A stretch of 64,000 nt of DNA from Xylona heveae TC161 (lineage: Eukaryota > Ascomycota > Xylonomycetes > Xylonales > Xylonaceae): the NCBI RefSeq assembly GCF_001619985.1, contig NW_017264198.1:992001-1056000 (forward strand), written 5' to 3'. Shown piece by piece: positions 2,430 through 44,503 of the stretch. The first letter of the stretch is position 1. Every line of letters starts with the position of its first letter. Made by a program: the position numbers and the translations under genes. The notes beneath the pieces are model-generated. The model did no database searches. It was not told where the DNA came from and saw only the letters and a program-made list of their open reading frames with translations.

Positions 2430-4076
2430 ATGCCCAAGACACGTCGGTTGTTGAACAAAGAGATTACATTATCCGCTGCTCTAAACGATGAGTCCAACAT
2501 ACTCCAAAAATTAACGTATTGGGAGAAAAGAGACAGGCTCTACGACCATGTTCTGCGTCATTCTGAGTCAATCCAGGCAATAACTGCGCATCATCTGGGC
2601 TTAGGAAATTCATCAGCCTGTATCATTTCCAGGCCTCAGGAATGGCTGCATGGGAGTTTCAACCTTTGCGTCCCCATGACGATTGAAGACTGGAAAAAGC
2701 GTATTATGATTCGATTTCCTCTGTCTTACCGTGTCGGTGAAGAAGTCTGTCCCGGAAATGGCGACGAAAAAATCCGATGTGAAGCTGCCACTTACGCTTG
2801 GCTGGAAGAAAACTGCCCAACGGTGCCTATTCCGCAGCTTTACGGGTTTGGGTTGTCGACAGGACGGCAAGTACGCTAGCATCACTCAGACTTCCTATCA
2901 TCATGCTATGCGTTGCTGACTTAACTAATGCAGTTCACATGTGTCAGAAACCTCTCCTTCGTTTGTCGTTGGTACTACAACGTTCGCTGTGCAGTCCGGC
3001 GGTGGCTAGGATATGCAGTCCCCTCGCGATATGTCCCTCATCAAACCAACGACCATCATCTGAAGGAGCTAGATCTAGGGTACGTGCTCATCGAATATAT
3101 CGAAGACGACCGTGGAAAAATGCTCTCAACAACCTGGGACGAACAGCGGCACGACGCAGAGCGTCGAACCAATCTGTTCCGCAGTTTGTCGAGGATACTG
3201 TTGGATATCGCACGGATAGAGTTGCCACGAATCGGGTCATTTACAATCGATGATGATGGTATGTTGAGTCTTACGAATCGGCCATTGAATGTTGAAATCC
3301 AAGACTACGAAAATCAAGGGATTCCCACGGGTATTCCGCGGGATTATACCTATGCGACGACAGACTCATATGTGACGGACTTACTATCGTTCCATGAGAA
3401 TCGGTTGCGCTTTCAACCAAATGGGGCAACGCACGAAGCTGACTGCGTGTATCAGATGTGCGCGCTTACTTTAATGAGAGCTCTATCCACTCATTTCATG
3501 CGGCGGGATCTGCGCCGAGGCCCGTTTGTCCTGGACTTTACTGATTTGCACAAAAGCAATATATTTGTTGACGACCAGTGGAACATCACTTGCCTAGTTG
3601 ACCTTGAATGGGCATGCTCTCATCCGATTGAGATGGTCCAGCCTCCCTGGTGGCTGACTGATCGGTCCCTCGATACTTTGAAAAGGGAGGAATACGATCC
3701 AATACGATCGGAGTTCATGCAGGCGCTGAAGCTTGAAGAAGCGGAATGTATCAAGATTCGGCGTGACAATTTCCTAAAGGGACAAAAGCACAATTCTTTG
3801 CAACTTTCGACCGTGATGCAACAGTCATGGGACAGTGGTACATTTTTCTTCGTCTGGGCCGTTCAAAGTTGCTCGTGTTTGTGCGGCTTATTTTACGAGC
3901 ATATCCAGCCGCTGTTCGCTAAGAACCACCTGGATGACGATAACCCTTTTTTTACTATCATGATGCGCTATACATCTACAAATGTGATGGGATTCGCGGT
4001 CATGAAGACTAAGGACAAGGAAGATTATGATGAGCGTCTTCGAAAGGAATTCGAGTCCTTGGAGGAAGAAGATTAG
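2430..4076 (+). CDS. APH-like phosphotransferase, copy A
   Basis: Two exons, 2430-2870 and 2934-4076 (63-bp intron, GTACGC...TGCAG), give 527 residues. The ATG at 2430 (MPKTRRLL) is chosen because copy B at 43220 starts with the matching MSITRRLL; an upstream in-frame TTG at 2412 is not a normal start. The fold signals are those of aminoglycoside/choline-type phosphotransferases (PF01636 superfamily). There is a nucleotide-loop-like GSFNLCVP from residue 75, a β-strand with IRFPLSYRVG, the catalytic TDLHKSNIF (Asp 351 base, Asn 356) and the metal-binding DLEWA (Asp 370). No signal peptide or membrane segment is seen. Substrate is unknown; fungal members are rarely antibiotic kinases. The gene faces a 74-aa gene (4467-4691, minus) with a tRNA-Lys in between. 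Copy B repeats the kinase/small-gene pairing. Active-site residues look intact, so activity is possible. Confidence 0.85.
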
Positions 4077-4138
4077 TCTTACGTTTAATTTTGCAGGATA
4101 TATAACATTTTGAACATGGTCTGTCAACAACGGAACAA

Positions 4139-4226
4139 GCCGGGGTAGCTCAATCGGTAGAGCGTGTGGCTCTTAATCACTTAAGAGATCACCTCAAGGT
4201 CGCGGGTTCGAGCCCCGCCTTCGGCT
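4139..4226 (+). tRNA. tRNA-Lys (CTT) with intron
   Basis: A full cloverleaf can be drawn. The acceptor stem GCCGGGG pairs with CTTCGGC (two G-U pairs), the D arm is GCTC...GAGC, and the anticodon loop CTCTTAA reads CTT. The T arm is GCGGG-TTCGAGC-CCCGC. A short intron (about 15 nt, roughly 4176-4190) follows the position after the anticodon. It contains CTTAAGAG, which can pair with the anticodon region as in other eukaryotic pre-tRNAs. The anticodon stem has one apparent mismatch. The exact intron limits are inferred from stem pairing. The gene lies between the two convergent protein genes of module A. Confidence 0.88.
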
Positions 4227-4466
4227 TAGCTTTTTGTACTTCTACAGCGTTATTTTTTACCTCACTCTTCCTCACACGGTCTCTGGAGAAGAGATGGGTC
4301 TTCTTTTCCTCTGCAACTGATTAATTCAAAGTTTGGCATTGCTATGTTTAACTCGCGCAACGATTCATGCCCCGCACTTCCTTGAGAGTCACCATGGATT
4401 TCACCGATGCCCTCTGCCAGCTGATACAGTTCTAAACCTGGATAGTATTACCCTCCCAACGATGAT

Positions 4467-4691
4467 TTATTTGGACTTCGAGCTCGAAGTAGAGGCTTTG
4501 TCCAAATTCTCTTTCTCTATGTGCACCGCTCCCAGGAGGTTCTTTCTTGCTTTCTCTGTTCTCTTGTCCTGGGCCGCCACGCCAGAGGACGAGAGTTGAT
4601 GCAAGGATATGGGATCTCCTCGAATCCCATACGTAGCCTCTTCGAGTTTTCCGTCGTATTTGGACGTTGACTTTCCGGAAGACTTGTCCAT
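4467..4691 (-). CDS. Small conserved protein (74 aa), partner of APH copy A
   Basis: A single open frame of 74 residues begins MDKSSGKSTSKYDGK and ends with a Ser/Lys-rich tail. I do not recognise a named family. Its reality rests on a second copy at 41359-41583: the two share KL, GIR, a following Asp, and the core LxQLSSSGxAAQ, then a KA...LxGA stretch. The protein is hydrophilic and lysine-rich, without signal peptide or membrane segment, and is probably helical in the middle. It is convergent with the APH-like kinase (stop codons 390 bp apart, tRNA between). In the other copy the stops are only 10 bp apart. A role as a substrate, regulator or antidote of the kinase is possible, but this is speculation from linkage alone. 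Confidence 0.6.
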   Translation of the reverse strand: MDKSSGKSTSKYDGKLEEATYGIRGDPISLHQLSSSGVAAQDKRTEKARKNLLGAVHIEKENLDKASTSSSKSK

Positions 4692-34511: not shown

Positions 34512-35540
34512 CCGTCAAAGACGTCGAACTTGCAGGGCAAGACTCCTGCCTTGGGAAATTCTATGAAAAGGAATATCTAAAAGCAGGGCGACACAGATCT
34601 AGACGGCCAAATCTAGAAGTTGAATATTTTCGAACTACAACAACACTCCTTACAGGCTCTCACATCTCATCGGATCATTTCGACGGCTCATATTTAGCAT
34701 CTTGTACTATGGCAGACTTCACTCCTCCACACCACTCCCTCAATCTCCTCCGTTCTCGACATGCCAGATCCAAAAGCAAAGGAGTTTGTTTCATGCAGTT
34801 CTATTGGCGTTGCGGTATTATCAAACGATCGATTTCGATAGTCGGTGACAAGCGGCGCGCGCAAATCATTTCGGAATTTGCTTTGATTTATTTTGTTTTC
34901 ACACACTGAAAACCGCATGCCTTTATTTTAAGGGCCTGGATTGCACCTCTTGCATTTAGGTGCCTTTTCAATCCATTTCTTCATTGAGTGGCGTTTGGGT
35001 AATCCATCTACGCTGACAGTTACTGCGTTGCGTATTTGGTTGTTTCTTCATTGTGCTTCATACCAAATAACTTCTATATTGTGTCATTTTCATACCATAC
35101 CAAAGCAGCGCATGGAAGAAGGCAGTATTTACTTTTTTCTACGGGTATTTGTTTTTTTTTTTTTCTTTTTTCAGATCATCCTATTTCATGGCTGTTCAAT
35201 CATAGTCAAGACGCAAGAAGCTAAGGGTAGATGCATTCATCTCAAATACACGTTACTTTCCATCATGTGCTTACCTCATTCGGTCATGGCTCGTCTTTTT
35301 ATTCCCCTTCTGAATGTGTACTTGTTGGTTAGATGAAATATTCAAGGGTTTTCTCATCTAAATCTTCTCGGAAGTGCTGCTTTGTACATTACATACAATA
35401 CATCACATGATCACTTTACCATTACTATCTAACGTTGTCTTCACTCATTTTTCCGGCATTTTGATGTACGCAAAACACTACTATAAGCTGTTTGTTCGTC
35501 CTTGGTGCGGTCCTTTTTTAACCTCAGCATCGGTCTTGTA
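34512..35540. other. AT-rich intergenic region downstream of CHD1
   Basis: A 1.03-kb stretch, T-rich on the plus strand, with poly-T runs at about 35150-35172. Open frames here are T-rich chance frames. The region ends at the TA target site of the transposon. Nothing else is supported. Confidence 0.5.
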
Positions 35541-35568
35541 CAGTACCTCGCCAAAAATCACGGCAATT
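35541..35568 (+). repeat. Left terminal inverted repeat of the mariner element
   Basis: Starts CAGTAC directly after a TA dinucleotide and contains ACGGCAATT. It pairs with the right end at 36860-36887, with mismatches mainly at positions 7-10. Confidence 0.85.
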
Positions 35569-35625
35569 CTTCCGACGCGTCGCGTCCACCATCATGAGCA
35601 TTTTTATTCAACAATAGACAGCAAC

Positions 35626-36708
35626 ATGCTGAGGAGGCCGCTGGCTCCAATTGCCAGCAATATTGTTAGGCGGAGAGAGCTGAGTAACTCTGAACGCGTT
35701 GCAGTTTGTTCGGCCTCAAAACTGAAGCATACGAATGCTGAGATCTCTAAGCAGTTCAAAATACCATACTCCACTGTCAAACGTACGGTGGAAAGTTACC
35801 ATGATACAGGCAATCCAAGCCCTGAAAAACGTCCTGGACGGCCTAAAAAGTTGAGCGATCGATCAATACGACTAATTGAGCGATTAATTCGCAAAGACCC
35901 AACTATAAATTATAAGCAATTGATCGAAGAAGTTCAGCTTGATGTCTCCTGCAACACCATCAAAAGAATGCTTGGAGAGTCTGGAATTTCAAAATGGATC
36001 GCTCAAAAAAAGCCCCGGCTTGGTCCTGAGGCTGCACGGAAGAGATATGAATGGTGTTTGGCACGTCGCGACTGGGTTCAGGAGTGGTATTCCATCATAT
36101 GGACAGATGAGTGTTTGGTGGAGCGTGGTGCAGGAAAACAGCGCTGCTGGGTCTTCCGAAAGCCACATGAAAAATGGAAGAAAGTTATGATTCAACCATA
36201 CAGCAAGGGCAGGGACTTAACCATCATGGTCTGGGGTGGATTTTACACTGGTGGGAGGACTGATTTAATTGATATGCCAGGAGATCCCCTCTCCGCTCGG
36301 GGTGGCTCTAGTGCAGCATCATATATCTCAGTTCTTGAAGAAGGGATCCCCCAGATCTATGAGCCAGGCCTCACCTTCATGCATGATAATGCCTCAATAC
36401 ACCGGGCAAGAATTGCGCGACAATGGCTTCAGGATCATGGAATACCAGTGATGGAATGGCCCCCGTACTCACCAGATTTGAACCCTATAGAGCACGCCTG
36501 GCATATGCTTAAAGAATGGCTTTATAAGCACCATCCAGAGCTCCTTGACGATACATCGGTAGATTGGAGGGCTGAGAGAAGACTTTTTGATGCTTTGAAG
36601 GCAGGCTGGGATGCAATTAGTGAGGAAATATTTGTTTCTTTAGTGGAGAGTATGCCCCGACGGATCGAGGCAGTAATTGCAGCAGGTGGATGGTACACAA
36701 AATACTGA
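35626..36708 (+). CDS. Tc1/mariner transposase (DD34E)
   Basis: An intronless frame of 360 residues from the ATG at 35626 (MLRRPLAPIA). The frame is open further upstream, but that part reaches outside the element and is not transposase-like. The N-terminus has a helix-turn-helix (NAEISKQFKIPYSTVKRTVE) and a GRPKK hook, then a second HTH. The catalytic triad is visible: Asp 161 in WTDE, Asp 254 in HDNASIH and Glu 289 in YSPDLNPIEHAW. The 34 residues between the second Asp and Glu define the Tc1 type. Conserved VWGGF also occurs between the first two. It cuts and rejoins its element's DNA at TA sites in the nucleus. All catalytic residues are present and the frame is unbroken, so it may be active or recently so. 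RIP-type decay is not apparent. Confidence 0.92.
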   Translation: MLRRPLAPIASNIVRRRELSNSERVAVCSASKLKHTNAEISKQFKIPYSTVKRTVESYHDTGNPSPEKRPGRPKKLSDRSIRLIERLIRKDPTINYKQLIEEVQLDVSCNTIKRMLGESGISKWIAQKKPRLGPEAARKRYEWCLARRDWVQEWYSIIWTDECLVERGAGKQRCWVFRKPHEKWKKVMIQPYSKGRDLTIMVWGGFYTGGRTDLIDMPGDPLSARGGSSAASYISVLEEGIPQIYEPGLTFMHDNASIHRARIARQWLQDHGIPVMEWPPYSPDLNPIEHAWHMLKEWLYKHHPELLDDTSVDWRAERRLFDALKAGWDAISEEIFVSLVESMPRRIEAVIAAGGWYTKY

Positions 36709-36859
36709 CCCAGGATTTAGCAATAATAAATTGATATTCTTTAAAGTCACTATCTACTCTATTTATATGCCAAAATACAAGTTCTAATATCAATTTCTCA
36801 TTGAGTTATCCATGAATATATTTTGTGGTCCGGAGGATGGTTGGGGTGGCATTTGTGGA

Positions 36860-36887
36860 AATTGCCGTCATTTATGGGCTAGTACTG
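36860..36887 (-). repeat. Right terminal inverted repeat of the mariner element
   Basis: The mirror of the left end; it finishes GTACTG, followed by TA. It sits 151 bp upstream of the ankyrin gene start. Confidence 0.85.
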
Positions 36888-37038
36888 TAACATACGGTGT
36901 CGACGGATAAAAATCTATCCGGGTGATAGCTGACGAGTATGCAGGTGAGCCTTAGCCGCACGGTGGCGCATTCATCTACAGGCGAAATAGGTCACCTTCA
37001 ACGGGAGATCTCTCCACTACCTTGTATACCGCCAGACA

Positions 37039-37963
37039 ATGTTGGAACGACAAATGGATGAAGTAGATATTTCAAGTTTAGTTGTTGGGAACCCTCCTCC
37101 AACCTGTGATCCTACGTATTACGCCCAGAAACCTGCCCCAGAACTCGAGCAATTGAAAGCGGCGGCTAAATCTGGTGACGTTGACCGAGTTCGCGAGCTT
37201 TATGCTTCGCATCAGCTTTCTCCGAACGATTTTGTTTATTCTCTCACCGTGGCGCAGCAGCATCATCGGATCGACGTTGCTAGGTTCCTGCTGGCTCAAG
37301 GTGTTCGCATACAAAATTTCCACGTGGAGAATGCCATCAACGAGAGAAATTATCCTTTTCTGACGCTTTATTTGGAGCACGGATATGACATTAATAAACC
37401 AATCAACTGGACAACTCCTTCGCCGCTCATGTTCGACACCCTTCATTCATGCTGCAAGATGGTGTCTGACTGATTACAGACGATCATTTGACGACGAGAA
37501 GCTTTGCAGGTGGCTACTCGAACGAGGCGCTGACCCAAATGCACCGTGTGTCCTCGATCTCACACCACTTTCTGTGGCCGTTCAGATCGCATCTTTTGGT
37601 ATTATAGCATTACTTTTTGAGCACGGCGGCTCAATCGACCATGGGCAGTTATTGCATTATGCTGTCAGGAGAGACCTAAAAGATTGTATTGACGTCCTGG
37701 CCTTCGTCCTCGACAGAGGCGCACCTATCAATCAGATCATGTACGAGAATTCTCCCGCCAGCTACGAATTGCAAAAGCCATTTGGAATCGGAACCCCTCT
37801 TCATGAGGCCGCGAGGCTGGGCAAGCTGGATGTGGTCGATCTTCTTCTCGCTCGAGGCGCTGATCCAACCAGGAGAGATGTGCGACGGCAGTTGCCTGTT
37901 GATATCGCTGAATGTTACAATAACAATGAAGTGGCGGAACGTCTCCGCGGTGTAAGCCGATGA
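37039..37963 (+). CDS. Ankyrin-repeat protein
   Basis: Two exons, 37039-37430 and 37480-37963 (49-bp intron GTTCGA...TACAG), give 291 residues. The N-terminus is a short acidic leader (MLERQMDEVDI). Ankyrin units then run through most of the protein, clearest as LKAAAKSGDVDRVRELY, CRWLLERGADPNAP with LTPLSVAV, and TPLHEAARLGKLDVVDLLL with RGADP. No transmembrane or enzymatic domain is seen, so a binding or scaffold role is likely; partner unknown. The donor GTTCGA is unusual. The frame of exon 1 stays open 14 codons past it, but only splicing joins the two ankyrin halves. The upstream space is just 151 bp to the mariner element, so its promoter may include or be displaced by that insertion. 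Confidence 0.78.
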
Positions 37964-41358: not shown

Positions 41359-41583
41359 ATGACTGATCAAACTCCACCCAATTCAGGCAAGGGGAAGCTG
41401 GCAGCCATCGGAATTCGAACCGACCTCAAGACATTGCAACAACTAAGTTCTTCGGGCCAAGCGGCCCAAAAAACACGAGAGGATAACCAGATTGATAAGG
41501 CAATGAGGTCTTTGGACGGAGCTCTCCAGGCTAAATTTGGGCCAGGAAAAAACAAAAACCAAGAAAGTTCTGGTAGAAAGTGA
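41359..41583 (+). CDS. Small conserved protein (74 aa), partner of APH copy B
   Basis: A single frame of 74 residues starts MTDQTPPNSGKGKL and ends in a polar Gln/Ser/Lys tail. It shares a central block with the 74-aa protein at 4467-4691: GIR, then Asp, then LQQLSSSGQAAQ against LHQLSSSGVAAQ, and a following KA...LxGA. The surrounding residues differ, so the block is conserved by selection or is the functional part. It is hydrophilic and probably helical, with no membrane segment. The stop codon lies only 10 bp from the stop of the convergent phosphotransferase. I recognise no named family. Its co-duplication with the kinase is the main evidence that it is a gene and that the two work together. 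Confidence 0.65.
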   Translation: MTDQTPPNSGKGKLAAIGIRTDLKTLQQLSSSGQAAQKTREDNQIDKAMRSLDGALQAKFGPGKNKNQESSGRK

Positions 41584-41593
41584 AAAGCAGCTT

Positions 41594-43220
41594 TCACAGA
41601 ACGTTGTCTTTTCCAACCAAAGATGTATTCTCGAATGCCTGTTGGAGCTGCTCATCATACTGTTCCTTATCTGCGAGTTTGCAGCCTGCAGTGTATACCA
41701 TACTCTTTCCCCAAAAATATGGCATGATCAAATTGAACTCCTCTATGTTGTCTGTGCAAAATAAGGGCCGAATGTGCTCCCGAAAAATAGTGAACACACC
41801 AGAAGGGCTAGAGAGTGCCAACGTATACCAAAACGTTCCTGATTCCCAATTTCGGTTCATGACATTGGAGAGGCGTGGCAATAAATTGTTGCTTGGCGTT
41901 GCAGAAGATTTTTTCTCTTCCTCATCCGACAGAATTGTCATGAATTCTGTTCGAATAACATCGTATTCTGGTGAGACCAACTGGTCTATACCTTTATTCG
42001 TTAGCCAATGAGGAGTGTTGACCAGTTCAATCGGCCTTGAACACGCCCATTCCAAATCCACCAGGCAGGTTATATTCCAGTCGGCATCCACAAATATATT
42101 GCTTTGATGGATATCACTCAGAGACAAAACAAAAGGACCACGGCGAAAGTCTCTTTGGAAAAATGAGTGGAAAACAGTCCGCATTGCAGTAAGCGTAGAC
42201 AGTTGATGGATACAGTCACCAAGATCATTCACAGCATTTGGTTGATACCGAAAGCGGTTGTCATGAACGCCAAGGAGATCCACCACATAGGAGTCAACTG
42301 TGGAATATGTGTAGTCACGGCCTATGTCGGTTGGGATATTCTCATTCTCCAATTGCTGTAGTTCAATCGACAGTGGTCGATTTGCGAGCTTCAAGAATCC
42401 GTCATTGTCAATGATAAATGAACCAATCCTAGGGCAAGGAATCCGGCTCATATCTAGAAGAATTCGGGAGAGACCACGGAAGAAGTTTGTACGTAGTCTG
42501 GTATCATGCTGGCCATCTTCCCATGTGTTGGAAAGCATAACACCTTGTGTTTCTTCAATATATTCGACCAGAATATATCCAGCACCAATGGTATTTGGGG
42601 GAATGCTGGTGGTCTGACGGCGAAGATACTTTGAAGGGGCTGGATATCCGAGCCATGATAACAGCTTGCGACGAAGGATTTGGAACCATCGGGTAAGGGC
42701 CGGCAAATTTTCAAGTCGGGTAAACTAGAACTAGTTAGCCAGGGTATCCAGAGACGAATAGCGATCGCTTCCGTACAGTTTCCCCAGTGGAGAGAGCAAA
42801 GCCGTACAGCAGTGGAATTGGGATGTCCGGGCAATTTTCTTGAAGCCAGGCGTAGGTTCCCGCCTCACATCTGATCTTTTCATCGCCATTTCCCGGCCTG
42901 AAAGCTTCGCCTACACGGTATGGAAGCGGGAACCGTATAAGAACACGTTTGTCATTCCAGGAAGGGACGACGACGGGAATGCAGACGTTGAAACTTCCAT
43001 GTAGCCAGTCTTCCACTTCTGCCACGCGGCATGCTGTACTGGACTTCAAGCCTAGATGGTACGCAACCACTTTCCGAATCCAAAGGTGATTGTCATCGAG
43101 GTGGGCAAAGAACTGGTTTCGCTGATCATAGTATCCCAACTGATGAAGAATATTTACTTCCTTCCCCTTAGCAGAATCATAAGTGATCTCCCGTCGAAGG
43201 AGACGTCGCGTTATCGACAT
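41594..43220 (-). CDS. APH-like phosphotransferase, copy B
   Basis: Two exons in minus order, 43220-42777 and 42724-41594 (47-bp intron, GTACGG...TTCTAG), give 524 residues. It aligns over its whole length with copy A at 2430-4076, with the intron at the same position (after the STG motif). The best-kept stretches are the loop GSFNVCIPV, IRCEAxTYAWLxENCP, the catalytic SDIHQSNIF (Asp 352, Asn 357) and WNITCLVDLEWACS. A TATA-like TATATAAAGG lies about 50 bp upstream of the ATG (43270-43280), which suggests a regulated promoter. Substrate is unknown; the fold is that of small-molecule or protein kinases of the APH superfamily. All key active-site residues are present. It overlaps nothing but ends 10 bp from the small gene. 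Confidence 0.86.
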
Positions 43221-43699: not shown

Positions 43700-44503
43700 T
43701 ATAAGACGCGCCAGCCGATCGAGGAGCCGTCTCCACAAAACATCATAGCATGTGGAAACCTTGGTGTCGTTCATAAACTTAACGGCCAGCTAGTTCGGAA
43801 GCTTCCTTCTAATCCCTCGAATCCAAATAGCTTGCGTGCTATCAAGACTGAAGCTCGAATTTACCAACACCTCCAGAAGCATAAGCGCATAGCTCGATGT
43901 TTATCGGCCACGGACGACCACGTTGATCTCCGCTATGAATCTCATGGGGATCTGGCCTCATATTTGCACAACCATACAGTCACGGAACGGTTCCGAATTT
44001 GCGTAGCTCAACAAGCTATTGAAGCCATCCATTACATCCACGAAAAAGAGGTCATCCATTCGGATCTTTCTGCTCGACAATTTTTGCTGGACGGCCGACT
44101 CAATCTTAGACTGTGTGACTTTTCTGGCTCTTCTTTAAAAGGCTCAGATGCTCTCGTCCTGGAAAATGCTTCTCATTTTTTACCCCGGGATGAAGACGCC
44201 CCAAATACTGTTTGCAGTGACATATTTGCTCTTGGTTCTACTCTTTACGAAATCTTTGCCGGCAAGATGCCTTATGCAGGGCTATCAGAAGAGGAGATTC
44301 TAAAACTATATTGCCAAAAAGTATTCCCTGATTTGAGTATGATCAAAAGGGAAGCTTGGAGGCGGGTCATCACCAAATGCTGGCACGCTGAATACAACAA
44401 CACGGCCGAGATATTTGGAGAAATTCATAAACGATCATGGATTTGCTATCGTTCTTGGCTAAGACTCTGTCCAAACAAAACCACCAAGCCGGCTCCAACG
44501 TAA
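43700..44503 (+). CDS. Protein-kinase-like gene (5' end unresolved)
   Basis: An open frame from 43700 to the TGA-independent stop at 44501-44503 encodes about 267 residues of a eukaryotic-type kinase. A short glycine-loop-like segment (CGNLGVVHKL) is followed by VRKLP (candidate ATP Lys) and a Glu in TEARIYQHL. The catalytic loop is HSDLSARQF (in place of HRD-LxxxN), the metal site is CDFSGSS (in place of DFG), and the back part has DIFALGSTLYEI and W-hinge residues. The Asn of the catalytic loop is replaced by Gln. The HSDL/DFS variant is common in a fungal-specific kinase group, so activity is uncertain. An in-frame stop sits just before 43700 within CTCTAG, a good acceptor, so a short upstream exon with the start codon is likely but not identified. 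It is convergent with a small Cys-rich gene. Confidence 0.65.
   Translation, partial: YKTRQPIEEPSPQNIIACGNLGVVHKLNGQLVRKLPSNPSNPNSLRAIKTEARIYQHLQKHKRIARCLSATDDHVDLRYESHGDLASYLHNHTVTERFRICVAQQAIEAIHYIHEKEVIHSDLSARQFLLDGRLNLRLCDFSGSSLKGSDALVLENASHFLPRDEDAPNTVCSDIFALGSTLYEIFAGKMPYAGLSEEEILKLYCQKVFPDLSMIKREAWRRVITKCWHAEYNNTAEIFGEIHKRSWICYRSWLRLCPNKTTKPAPT

What the first reader, a model, noticed from the sequence alone, without database searches (positions are those of the whole stretch)
41359..43220. Two-gene module: APH-like kinase and 74-aa protein, tail to tail (copy B)
A 74-residue gene and a 524-residue APH-like phosphotransferase face each other with only 10 bp between stop codons. The same pair, with the same relative orientation and intron position, occurs about 37 kb away (2430-4691). 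The two small proteins share LxQLSSSGxAAQ although their ends differ. Co-duplication of a kinase with a tiny unknown partner suggests a functional pair: substrate, regulator, or an antidote as in selfish or conflict systems. The functional part is speculation. The 3' ends must overlap as transcripts.
Basis: partly seen in the sequence, partly recalled or inferred. Interest (0 to 1): 0.78.

Follow-up and report, generated by a model that had tools for sequence, protein, structure and literature searches.

The report
Duplicated fungal kinase and small-protein pair
A fungal kinase gene and a tiny neighbouring gene of unknown function exist as two old, diverged copies in the same stretch of genome, so they appear to have been copied together, but whether they work together is not shown.

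Summary
Copy B holds a 74-codon gene (41359-41583, +) facing a 524-residue kinase gene (43220-41594, -, one predicted intron), with 10 bp between the stops. Copy A (2430-4691) is the same convergent pair, inverted as a block. The kinases are 50.7% identical over 523 positions. The small proteins are homologous: 35.4 bits, reached by 0 of 1000 shuffled queries; 28 of 70 aligned residues are identical, 18 of those 28 with different codons. That argues for a real protein under constraint. Kinase A passes the Pfam APH cut-off; kinase B alone does not.

One correction matters: in copy A the stops are 390 bp apart with a tRNA-Lys gene between them, so overlapping 3' transcripts are not a shared feature.

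The small family had no significant match in Pfam, NCBIfam, solved structures, prokaryote genomes or viral contigs. Fungal genomes, the decisive place, could not be searched. The most economical reading is an old inverted duplication of a two-gene segment in a copy-variable fungal kinase family. A functional partnership is possible but unproven; nothing found supports toxin/antidote.

The parts
41359..41583 (+). small gene B, 74 aa, pI 10.1
   Evidence: open frame; homologous to small gene A; third-codon-position excess of differences; the only frame of six open through both copies; A at -3 of the start codon and an in-frame stop upstream with no other ATG between
41594..43220 (-). kinase B, 524 aa in two predicted exons
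   Evidence: spliced model; 50.7% identical to kinase A; PF01636 E 0.018, below the gathering cut-off
42725..42776 (-). intron of kinase B, 52 nt, GT-AG, predicted
   Evidence: matching protein position to the intron of kinase A
41584..41593 (.). 10-bp gap between the two stop codons of copy B
2430..4076 (+). kinase A, 527 aa in two predicted exons
   Evidence: PF01636 E 5.4e-6, 26.8 bits against a cut-off of 23.2
2871..2933 (+). intron of kinase A, 63 nt, GT-AG, predicted
4467..4691 (-). small gene A, 74 aa, pI 9.5
4138..4227 (+). tRNA-Lys (CTT) between the two genes of copy A
   Evidence: ARAGORN and Rfam RF00005, 53.9 bits

Best explanation
This is an old duplication, inverted relative to its partner about 37 kb away, of a two-gene segment in what is most likely a filamentous fungus. 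One gene encodes a kinase of the APH (PF01636) family; the other encodes a small, basic, hydrophilic protein with a conserved GIR-D---L-QLSSSG-AAQ core that is predicted, at low confidence, to be helical. Shown: both small frames are homologous and look protein-coding, and the kinases are most alike around their catalytic loop. Inferred: the kinases are active phosphotransferases, and the two genes were copied in one event. Inferred with less confidence: selection kept both genes in both copies, so the small protein may bind the kinase or be its substrate. Co-retention of two independent neighbours fits the data at least as well. The confidence below is for the duplicated pair of real genes; the first two rivals split the separate question of whether they work together.
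For: Both genes have their only in-window homologue in the matching place of the other copy, in the same convergent order. Intron position is shared. 0 of 1000 shuffles reach the small-protein similarity. Differences by codon position are 33/29/55 over 70 codons for the small genes and 198/155/336 over 518 codons for the kinases. Only the proposed frame is open through both small genes. The best conserved 25-residue kinase block (88%) is NIFVD--WNITCLVDLEWACS-PIE. PF01636 genes are reported over-represented among copy-number changes in another filamentous fungus, Coccidioides posadasii (PMC9782707, passages).
Against: Only one pair of copies in one genome; no fungal relatives could be searched, so linkage elsewhere is untested. 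Spacing and the interposed tRNA differ between copies. No synonymous distance could be computed (NG86 returned no value, YN00 failed), so the event cannot be dated and a single event cannot be proved. The codon-usage score supports the small frames only weakly: ranks 5 and 6 of 85 ATG frames of 60-95 aa, and the same score is near zero for both kinases. In tblastx the small genes also match in an antisense frame almost as well (31.8 against 34.5 bits), so the tblastx score alone does not pick the strand. No exact same-strand 9-mer is shared between the roughly 500-bp upstream regions of the two small genes or of the two kinases.
Confidence: 0.7

Rival explanations
1. A dedicated two-component module: the APH-like kinase phosphorylates, or is regulated by, the small protein, whose serine-rich core is the contact or target.
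For: Both genes are present in both copies after strong divergence; the serine motif lies in the longest identical run of the small proteins, QLSSSG; 17 of 74 (A) and 12 of 74 (B) residues are S or T.
Against: No interaction, structure or expression data; the small model is low confidence (mean pLDDT 60.6) and the kinase model unusable (34.0). Tight linkage alone can explain co-duplication.
Confidence: 0.3
2. Independent neighbours: the kinase family expands by segmental duplication and carried a neighbouring small gene with its own role along.
For: The APH family is copy-variable in a fungus (PMC9782707, passages); a 390-bp gap with a tRNA gene in copy A shows that the arrangement is not rigid.
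Against: Both small genes appear constrained and neither was lost.
Confidence: 0.55
3. A selfish toxin/antidote pair in which the kinase is the antidote, by analogy with the kinase domain of Spok spore killers.
For: In Spok proteins a kinase domain gives resistance (PMC6660238, passages).
Against: Spok is one protein with a nuclease and a kinase domain; here no nuclease domain was found by Pfam in either gene, and the neighbours that matched Pfam are mostly housekeeping-type genes.
Confidence: 0.04
4. The small frames are chance open frames inside 3' flanking DNA of a duplicated kinase.
For: Codon-usage support is weak, and an antisense tblastx match is almost as strong.
Against: Protein-level similarity above all 1000 shuffles; differences concentrate at third positions; only the proposed frame is open in both copies; equal length and clean starts.
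Confidence: 0.05

Closest known systems
Phosphotransferase enzyme family, APH (PF01636)
   Same: Kinase A passes the family cut-off; the motifs D-x-H-x-S-N ... VDLEW are kept in both (motif roles recalled).
   Different: Kinase B alone is below the cut-off; the profile match covers residues 191-378 of 527 in A and 343-377 of 524 in B, leaving long regions outside; the usual first histidine of the catalytic loop is F in A and L in B (usual residue recalled).
Spok spore-killer kinase domain (Podospora)
   Same: A fungal kinase-like domain, there tied to a conflict system (PMC6660238, passages).
   Different: Spok is a single protein with a nuclease domain; no nuclease domain was found here by Pfam.
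FunK1 fungal kinases
   Same: Fungal kinase family with lineage-specific expansions (PMC3203195, passages).
   Different: FunK1 is described as sharing homology with Pkinase PF00069; these kinases match only PF01636.

Membership tests
APH, PF01636 | profile score at or above the curated cut-off | tested here: met
   Kinase A 26.8 against 23.2 bits: met. Kinase B 15.3: not met on its own; it is placed by 50.7% identity to A
APH, PF01636 | catalytic-loop Asp and Asn and metal-binding Asp present | tested here: met
   KA FTDLHKSN at 349 and LVDLEW at 368; KB LSDIHQSN at 350 and LVDLEW at 369; residue roles recalled
APH, PF01636 | phosphotransferase activity | not testable with these tools
   needs an enzyme assay
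APH, PF01636 | APH fold | tested here: inconclusive
   AlphaFold2 model from an alignment of 3 rows has mean pLDDT 34.0; no fold search was run
Spok spore killers | nuclease and kinase domains in one protein | tested here: not met
   Pfam at E up to 10 gives only PF01636 for the kinases, nothing for small A and a weak EAD4 match (E 0.12, below cut-off) for small B
FunK1 kinases | similarity to the protein-kinase profile Pkinase PF00069 | tested here: not met
   only PF01636 matched at E up to 10; PF00069 is in the library. Whether the library holds a FunK1 profile was not checked

The most novel reading that the evidence does not exclude
An undescribed family of small basic fungal proteins serves as dedicated partner or substrate of a subfamily of APH-like kinases, and the two are inherited and duplicated as a module.
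Probability: 0.3. Interest if true: 0.6.

Novelty: new member of a known kind. Interest (0 to 1): 0.36.

Why it matters
APH-family kinases are copy-variable in at least one filamentous fungus (27 genes with diversity data in Coccidioides posadasii; PMC9782707, passages). The passages I saw give them no established cellular role; deletion of one in Penicillium digitatum changed neither resistance to six fungicides nor virulence on citrus (PMC3532085, passages). A conserved small partner would give a handle on what such kinases act on, and makes a simple linkage test across fungal genomes possible.

Tried and rejected
Searches for relatives outside the window found none confirmed by tblastn: viral contigs with kinase B exon 2, small B, the small alignment and the kinase exon-2 alignment; genome contigs with the small alignment and the kinase exon-2 alignment. 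These collections are viral and prokaryotic, so the misses say little about fungi. Solved structures gave no hit for full kinase B or the two-copy exon-2 profile; kinase A alone was not searched there. Small B and the small alignment gave only chance-level hits (best E 0.7 and 0.32). NCBIfam gave none for the small proteins. A phosphoglycerate kinase frame of the window was compared with solved structures to place the organism, without result.

A Pfam EAD4 match of small B (E 0.12, 13.4 bits against a cut-off of 27; absent in small A) was rejected as chance. The AlphaFold2 kinase model was not used for a fold search because its confidence is too low. A bacterial promoter/terminator scan is not informative for a fungus.

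Literature: the peptide core was searched in two calls (19, 59; seven peptide strings in all), with 0 papers. Topic searches found 433, 503, 6, 49, 19, 29 and 7 papers, of which 20, 20, 6, 15, 10, 12 and 7 were listed; no listed title or abstract start describes this pair. I read passages, not whole papers, of PMC3532085, PMC9782707, PMC5374152, PMC3203195, PMC6660238 and PMC3591445. One search for two cited references in PMC9782707 gave nothing.

One search confirms that no loci were fetched.

Full report
What is there. The window is from a eukaryote, most likely a filamentous fungus. This is inferred from short GT-AG introns and from neighbours such as CHD1, an FF-domain (PRP40-like) protein, Mon2, Trs65, Iml2, phosphoglycerate kinase and a probable RLI-type ABC protein. 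No tool named the organism and no whole genome is held. Of 53 stop-to-stop frames of 150 aa or more, 30 were scanned against Pfam as such, and the two kinases were scanned in spliced form.

Copy B. The 74-codon gene at 41359-41583 (+) faces a kinase gene running from 43220 to 41594 (-). The kinase has one predicted intron of 52 nt (42725-42776) and encodes 524 aa. Ten bases separate the stop codons. The start codons of both small genes have A at -3, and in each an in-frame stop lies upstream with no other ATG in between.

Copy A. The kinase at 2430-4076 (+) has one predicted intron of 63 nt (2871-2933) at the matching protein position and encodes 527 aa. The small gene runs 4691-4467 (-) and encodes 74 aa. 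The arrangement is again tail to tail, but the block is inverted relative to copy B. The stops are 390 bp apart, and a tRNA-Lys(CTT) gene sits at 4138-4227 between them. Overlap of the two transcripts is likely in copy B (inference from the 10-bp gap) but is not forced in copy A, so it is not a shared feature of the pair.

Is it more than chance? The kinases are 50.7% identical over 523 positions by BLASTP, or 267 of 518 aligned residues by MAFFT. The small proteins align at 35.4 bits. In the window, tblastn finds each small gene from the other with E 2e-6, and every other listed hit has E 0.067 or worse. Of 1000 residue-shuffled queries, 0 reached 35.4 bits and the best gave 31.2. No third copy of either gene was seen in the window.

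Is the small frame a gene? In the protein alignment 28 of 70 aligned residues are identical, and 18 of those 28 use different codons. Differences by codon position are 33, 29 and 55; in the 20-codon core (GIR...AAQ) they are 4, 5 and 12. That pattern fits purifying selection on the sense frame, with the caveat that the alignment was made on the protein. Of the six frames, only the proposed one is open through both small genes; each other frame has at least one stop in at least one copy. Against this, a tblastx match in an antisense frame scores almost as high (31.8 against 34.5 bits), and a codon-usage score trained on seven neighbouring conserved frames is a weak test: it ranks the small frames 5th and 6th of 85 ATG frames of 60-95 aa but gives the two kinases values near zero. 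dN is about 0.72 for the small genes and 0.44 for the kinases; no dS could be computed, which I take as saturation, so no ratio and no date can be given.

What the proteins are. Kinase A matches PF01636 above its cut-off; kinase B matches it below the cut-off. Neither full kinase B nor the exon-2 profile of both copies matches a solved structure by sequence. The two most conserved 25-residue blocks between A and B are NIFVD--WNITCLVDLEWACS-PIE (88%) and GDEKIRCEA-TYAWL-ENCP--PIP (84%). They contain what I recall as the catalytic Asn, the metal-binding Asp and the helix-C Glu of APH kinases; the catalytic Asp lies five residues before the first block. Conservation there suggests that both are active enzymes (inference). 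The small proteins are basic (pI 9.5 and 10.1), hydrophilic and rich in Ser/Thr (17 and 12 of 74). AlphaFold2 gives one helix at residues 23-60 of small B with low confidence (mean pLDDT 60.6). They have no match above threshold in Pfam or NCBIfam and only chance-level matches among solved structures.

How it most likely works. The firm part is two diverged copies of a two-gene segment, in inverted orientation, with both genes kept in both. The kinase presumably transfers phosphate to a small molecule or protein (inference from the family). Whether the small protein is its substrate, its regulator or an unrelated neighbour cannot be decided from one pair of copies. I give a functional partnership about 0.3 and independent neighbours about 0.55. 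A toxin/antidote role gets about 0.04: the fungal precedent for a kinase domain as antidote, Spok, is a single protein with a nuclease domain (PMC6660238, passages), and no such domain is seen here.

Comparison with what is known. PF01636 genes are over-represented among copy-number changes and show raised nucleotide diversity in Coccidioides posadasii (PMC9782707, passages), so duplication of such a kinase is ordinary. Other genome papers read them as possible aminoglycoside-resistance genes by name alone (PMC5374152, passages); the one deletion I saw, in Penicillium digitatum, changed neither resistance to six fungicides nor virulence on citrus (PMC3532085, passages). The possibly new part is the small family. 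Seven strings of its core were not found in the text of 5.39 million papers, and no title or abstract start listed by the topic searches describes the pair (lists capped). Those searches cannot exclude descriptions under other words, and fungal proteomes could not be searched.

Noticed in passing
43700-44503 (+): A protein-kinase-like frame (PF07714 E 6.7e-22, PF00069 E 5.3e-18) lies upstream of kinase B in divergent orientation, with HSDLSARQFL at the catalytic loop; it recalls the filamentous-fungus kinases called Ffk in PMC3591445 (the likeness is recalled, not tested).
   Followed up: partly
35362-36708 (+): Frame of 448 aa with Tc1/mariner-type transposase domains (DDE_3, HTH_Tnp_Tc3_2) between the two pairs; two inverted-repeat pairs were found in 34800-37200, neither of which brackets the frame.
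   Followed up: partly
36991-37963 (+): Ankyrin-repeat frames directly after the transposase frame; the first is below the Pfam cut-off.
   Followed up: no
4138-4227 (+): The only tRNA gene found in the window, tRNA-Lys(CTT), lies between the two genes of copy A; none lies in copy B.
   Followed up: yes
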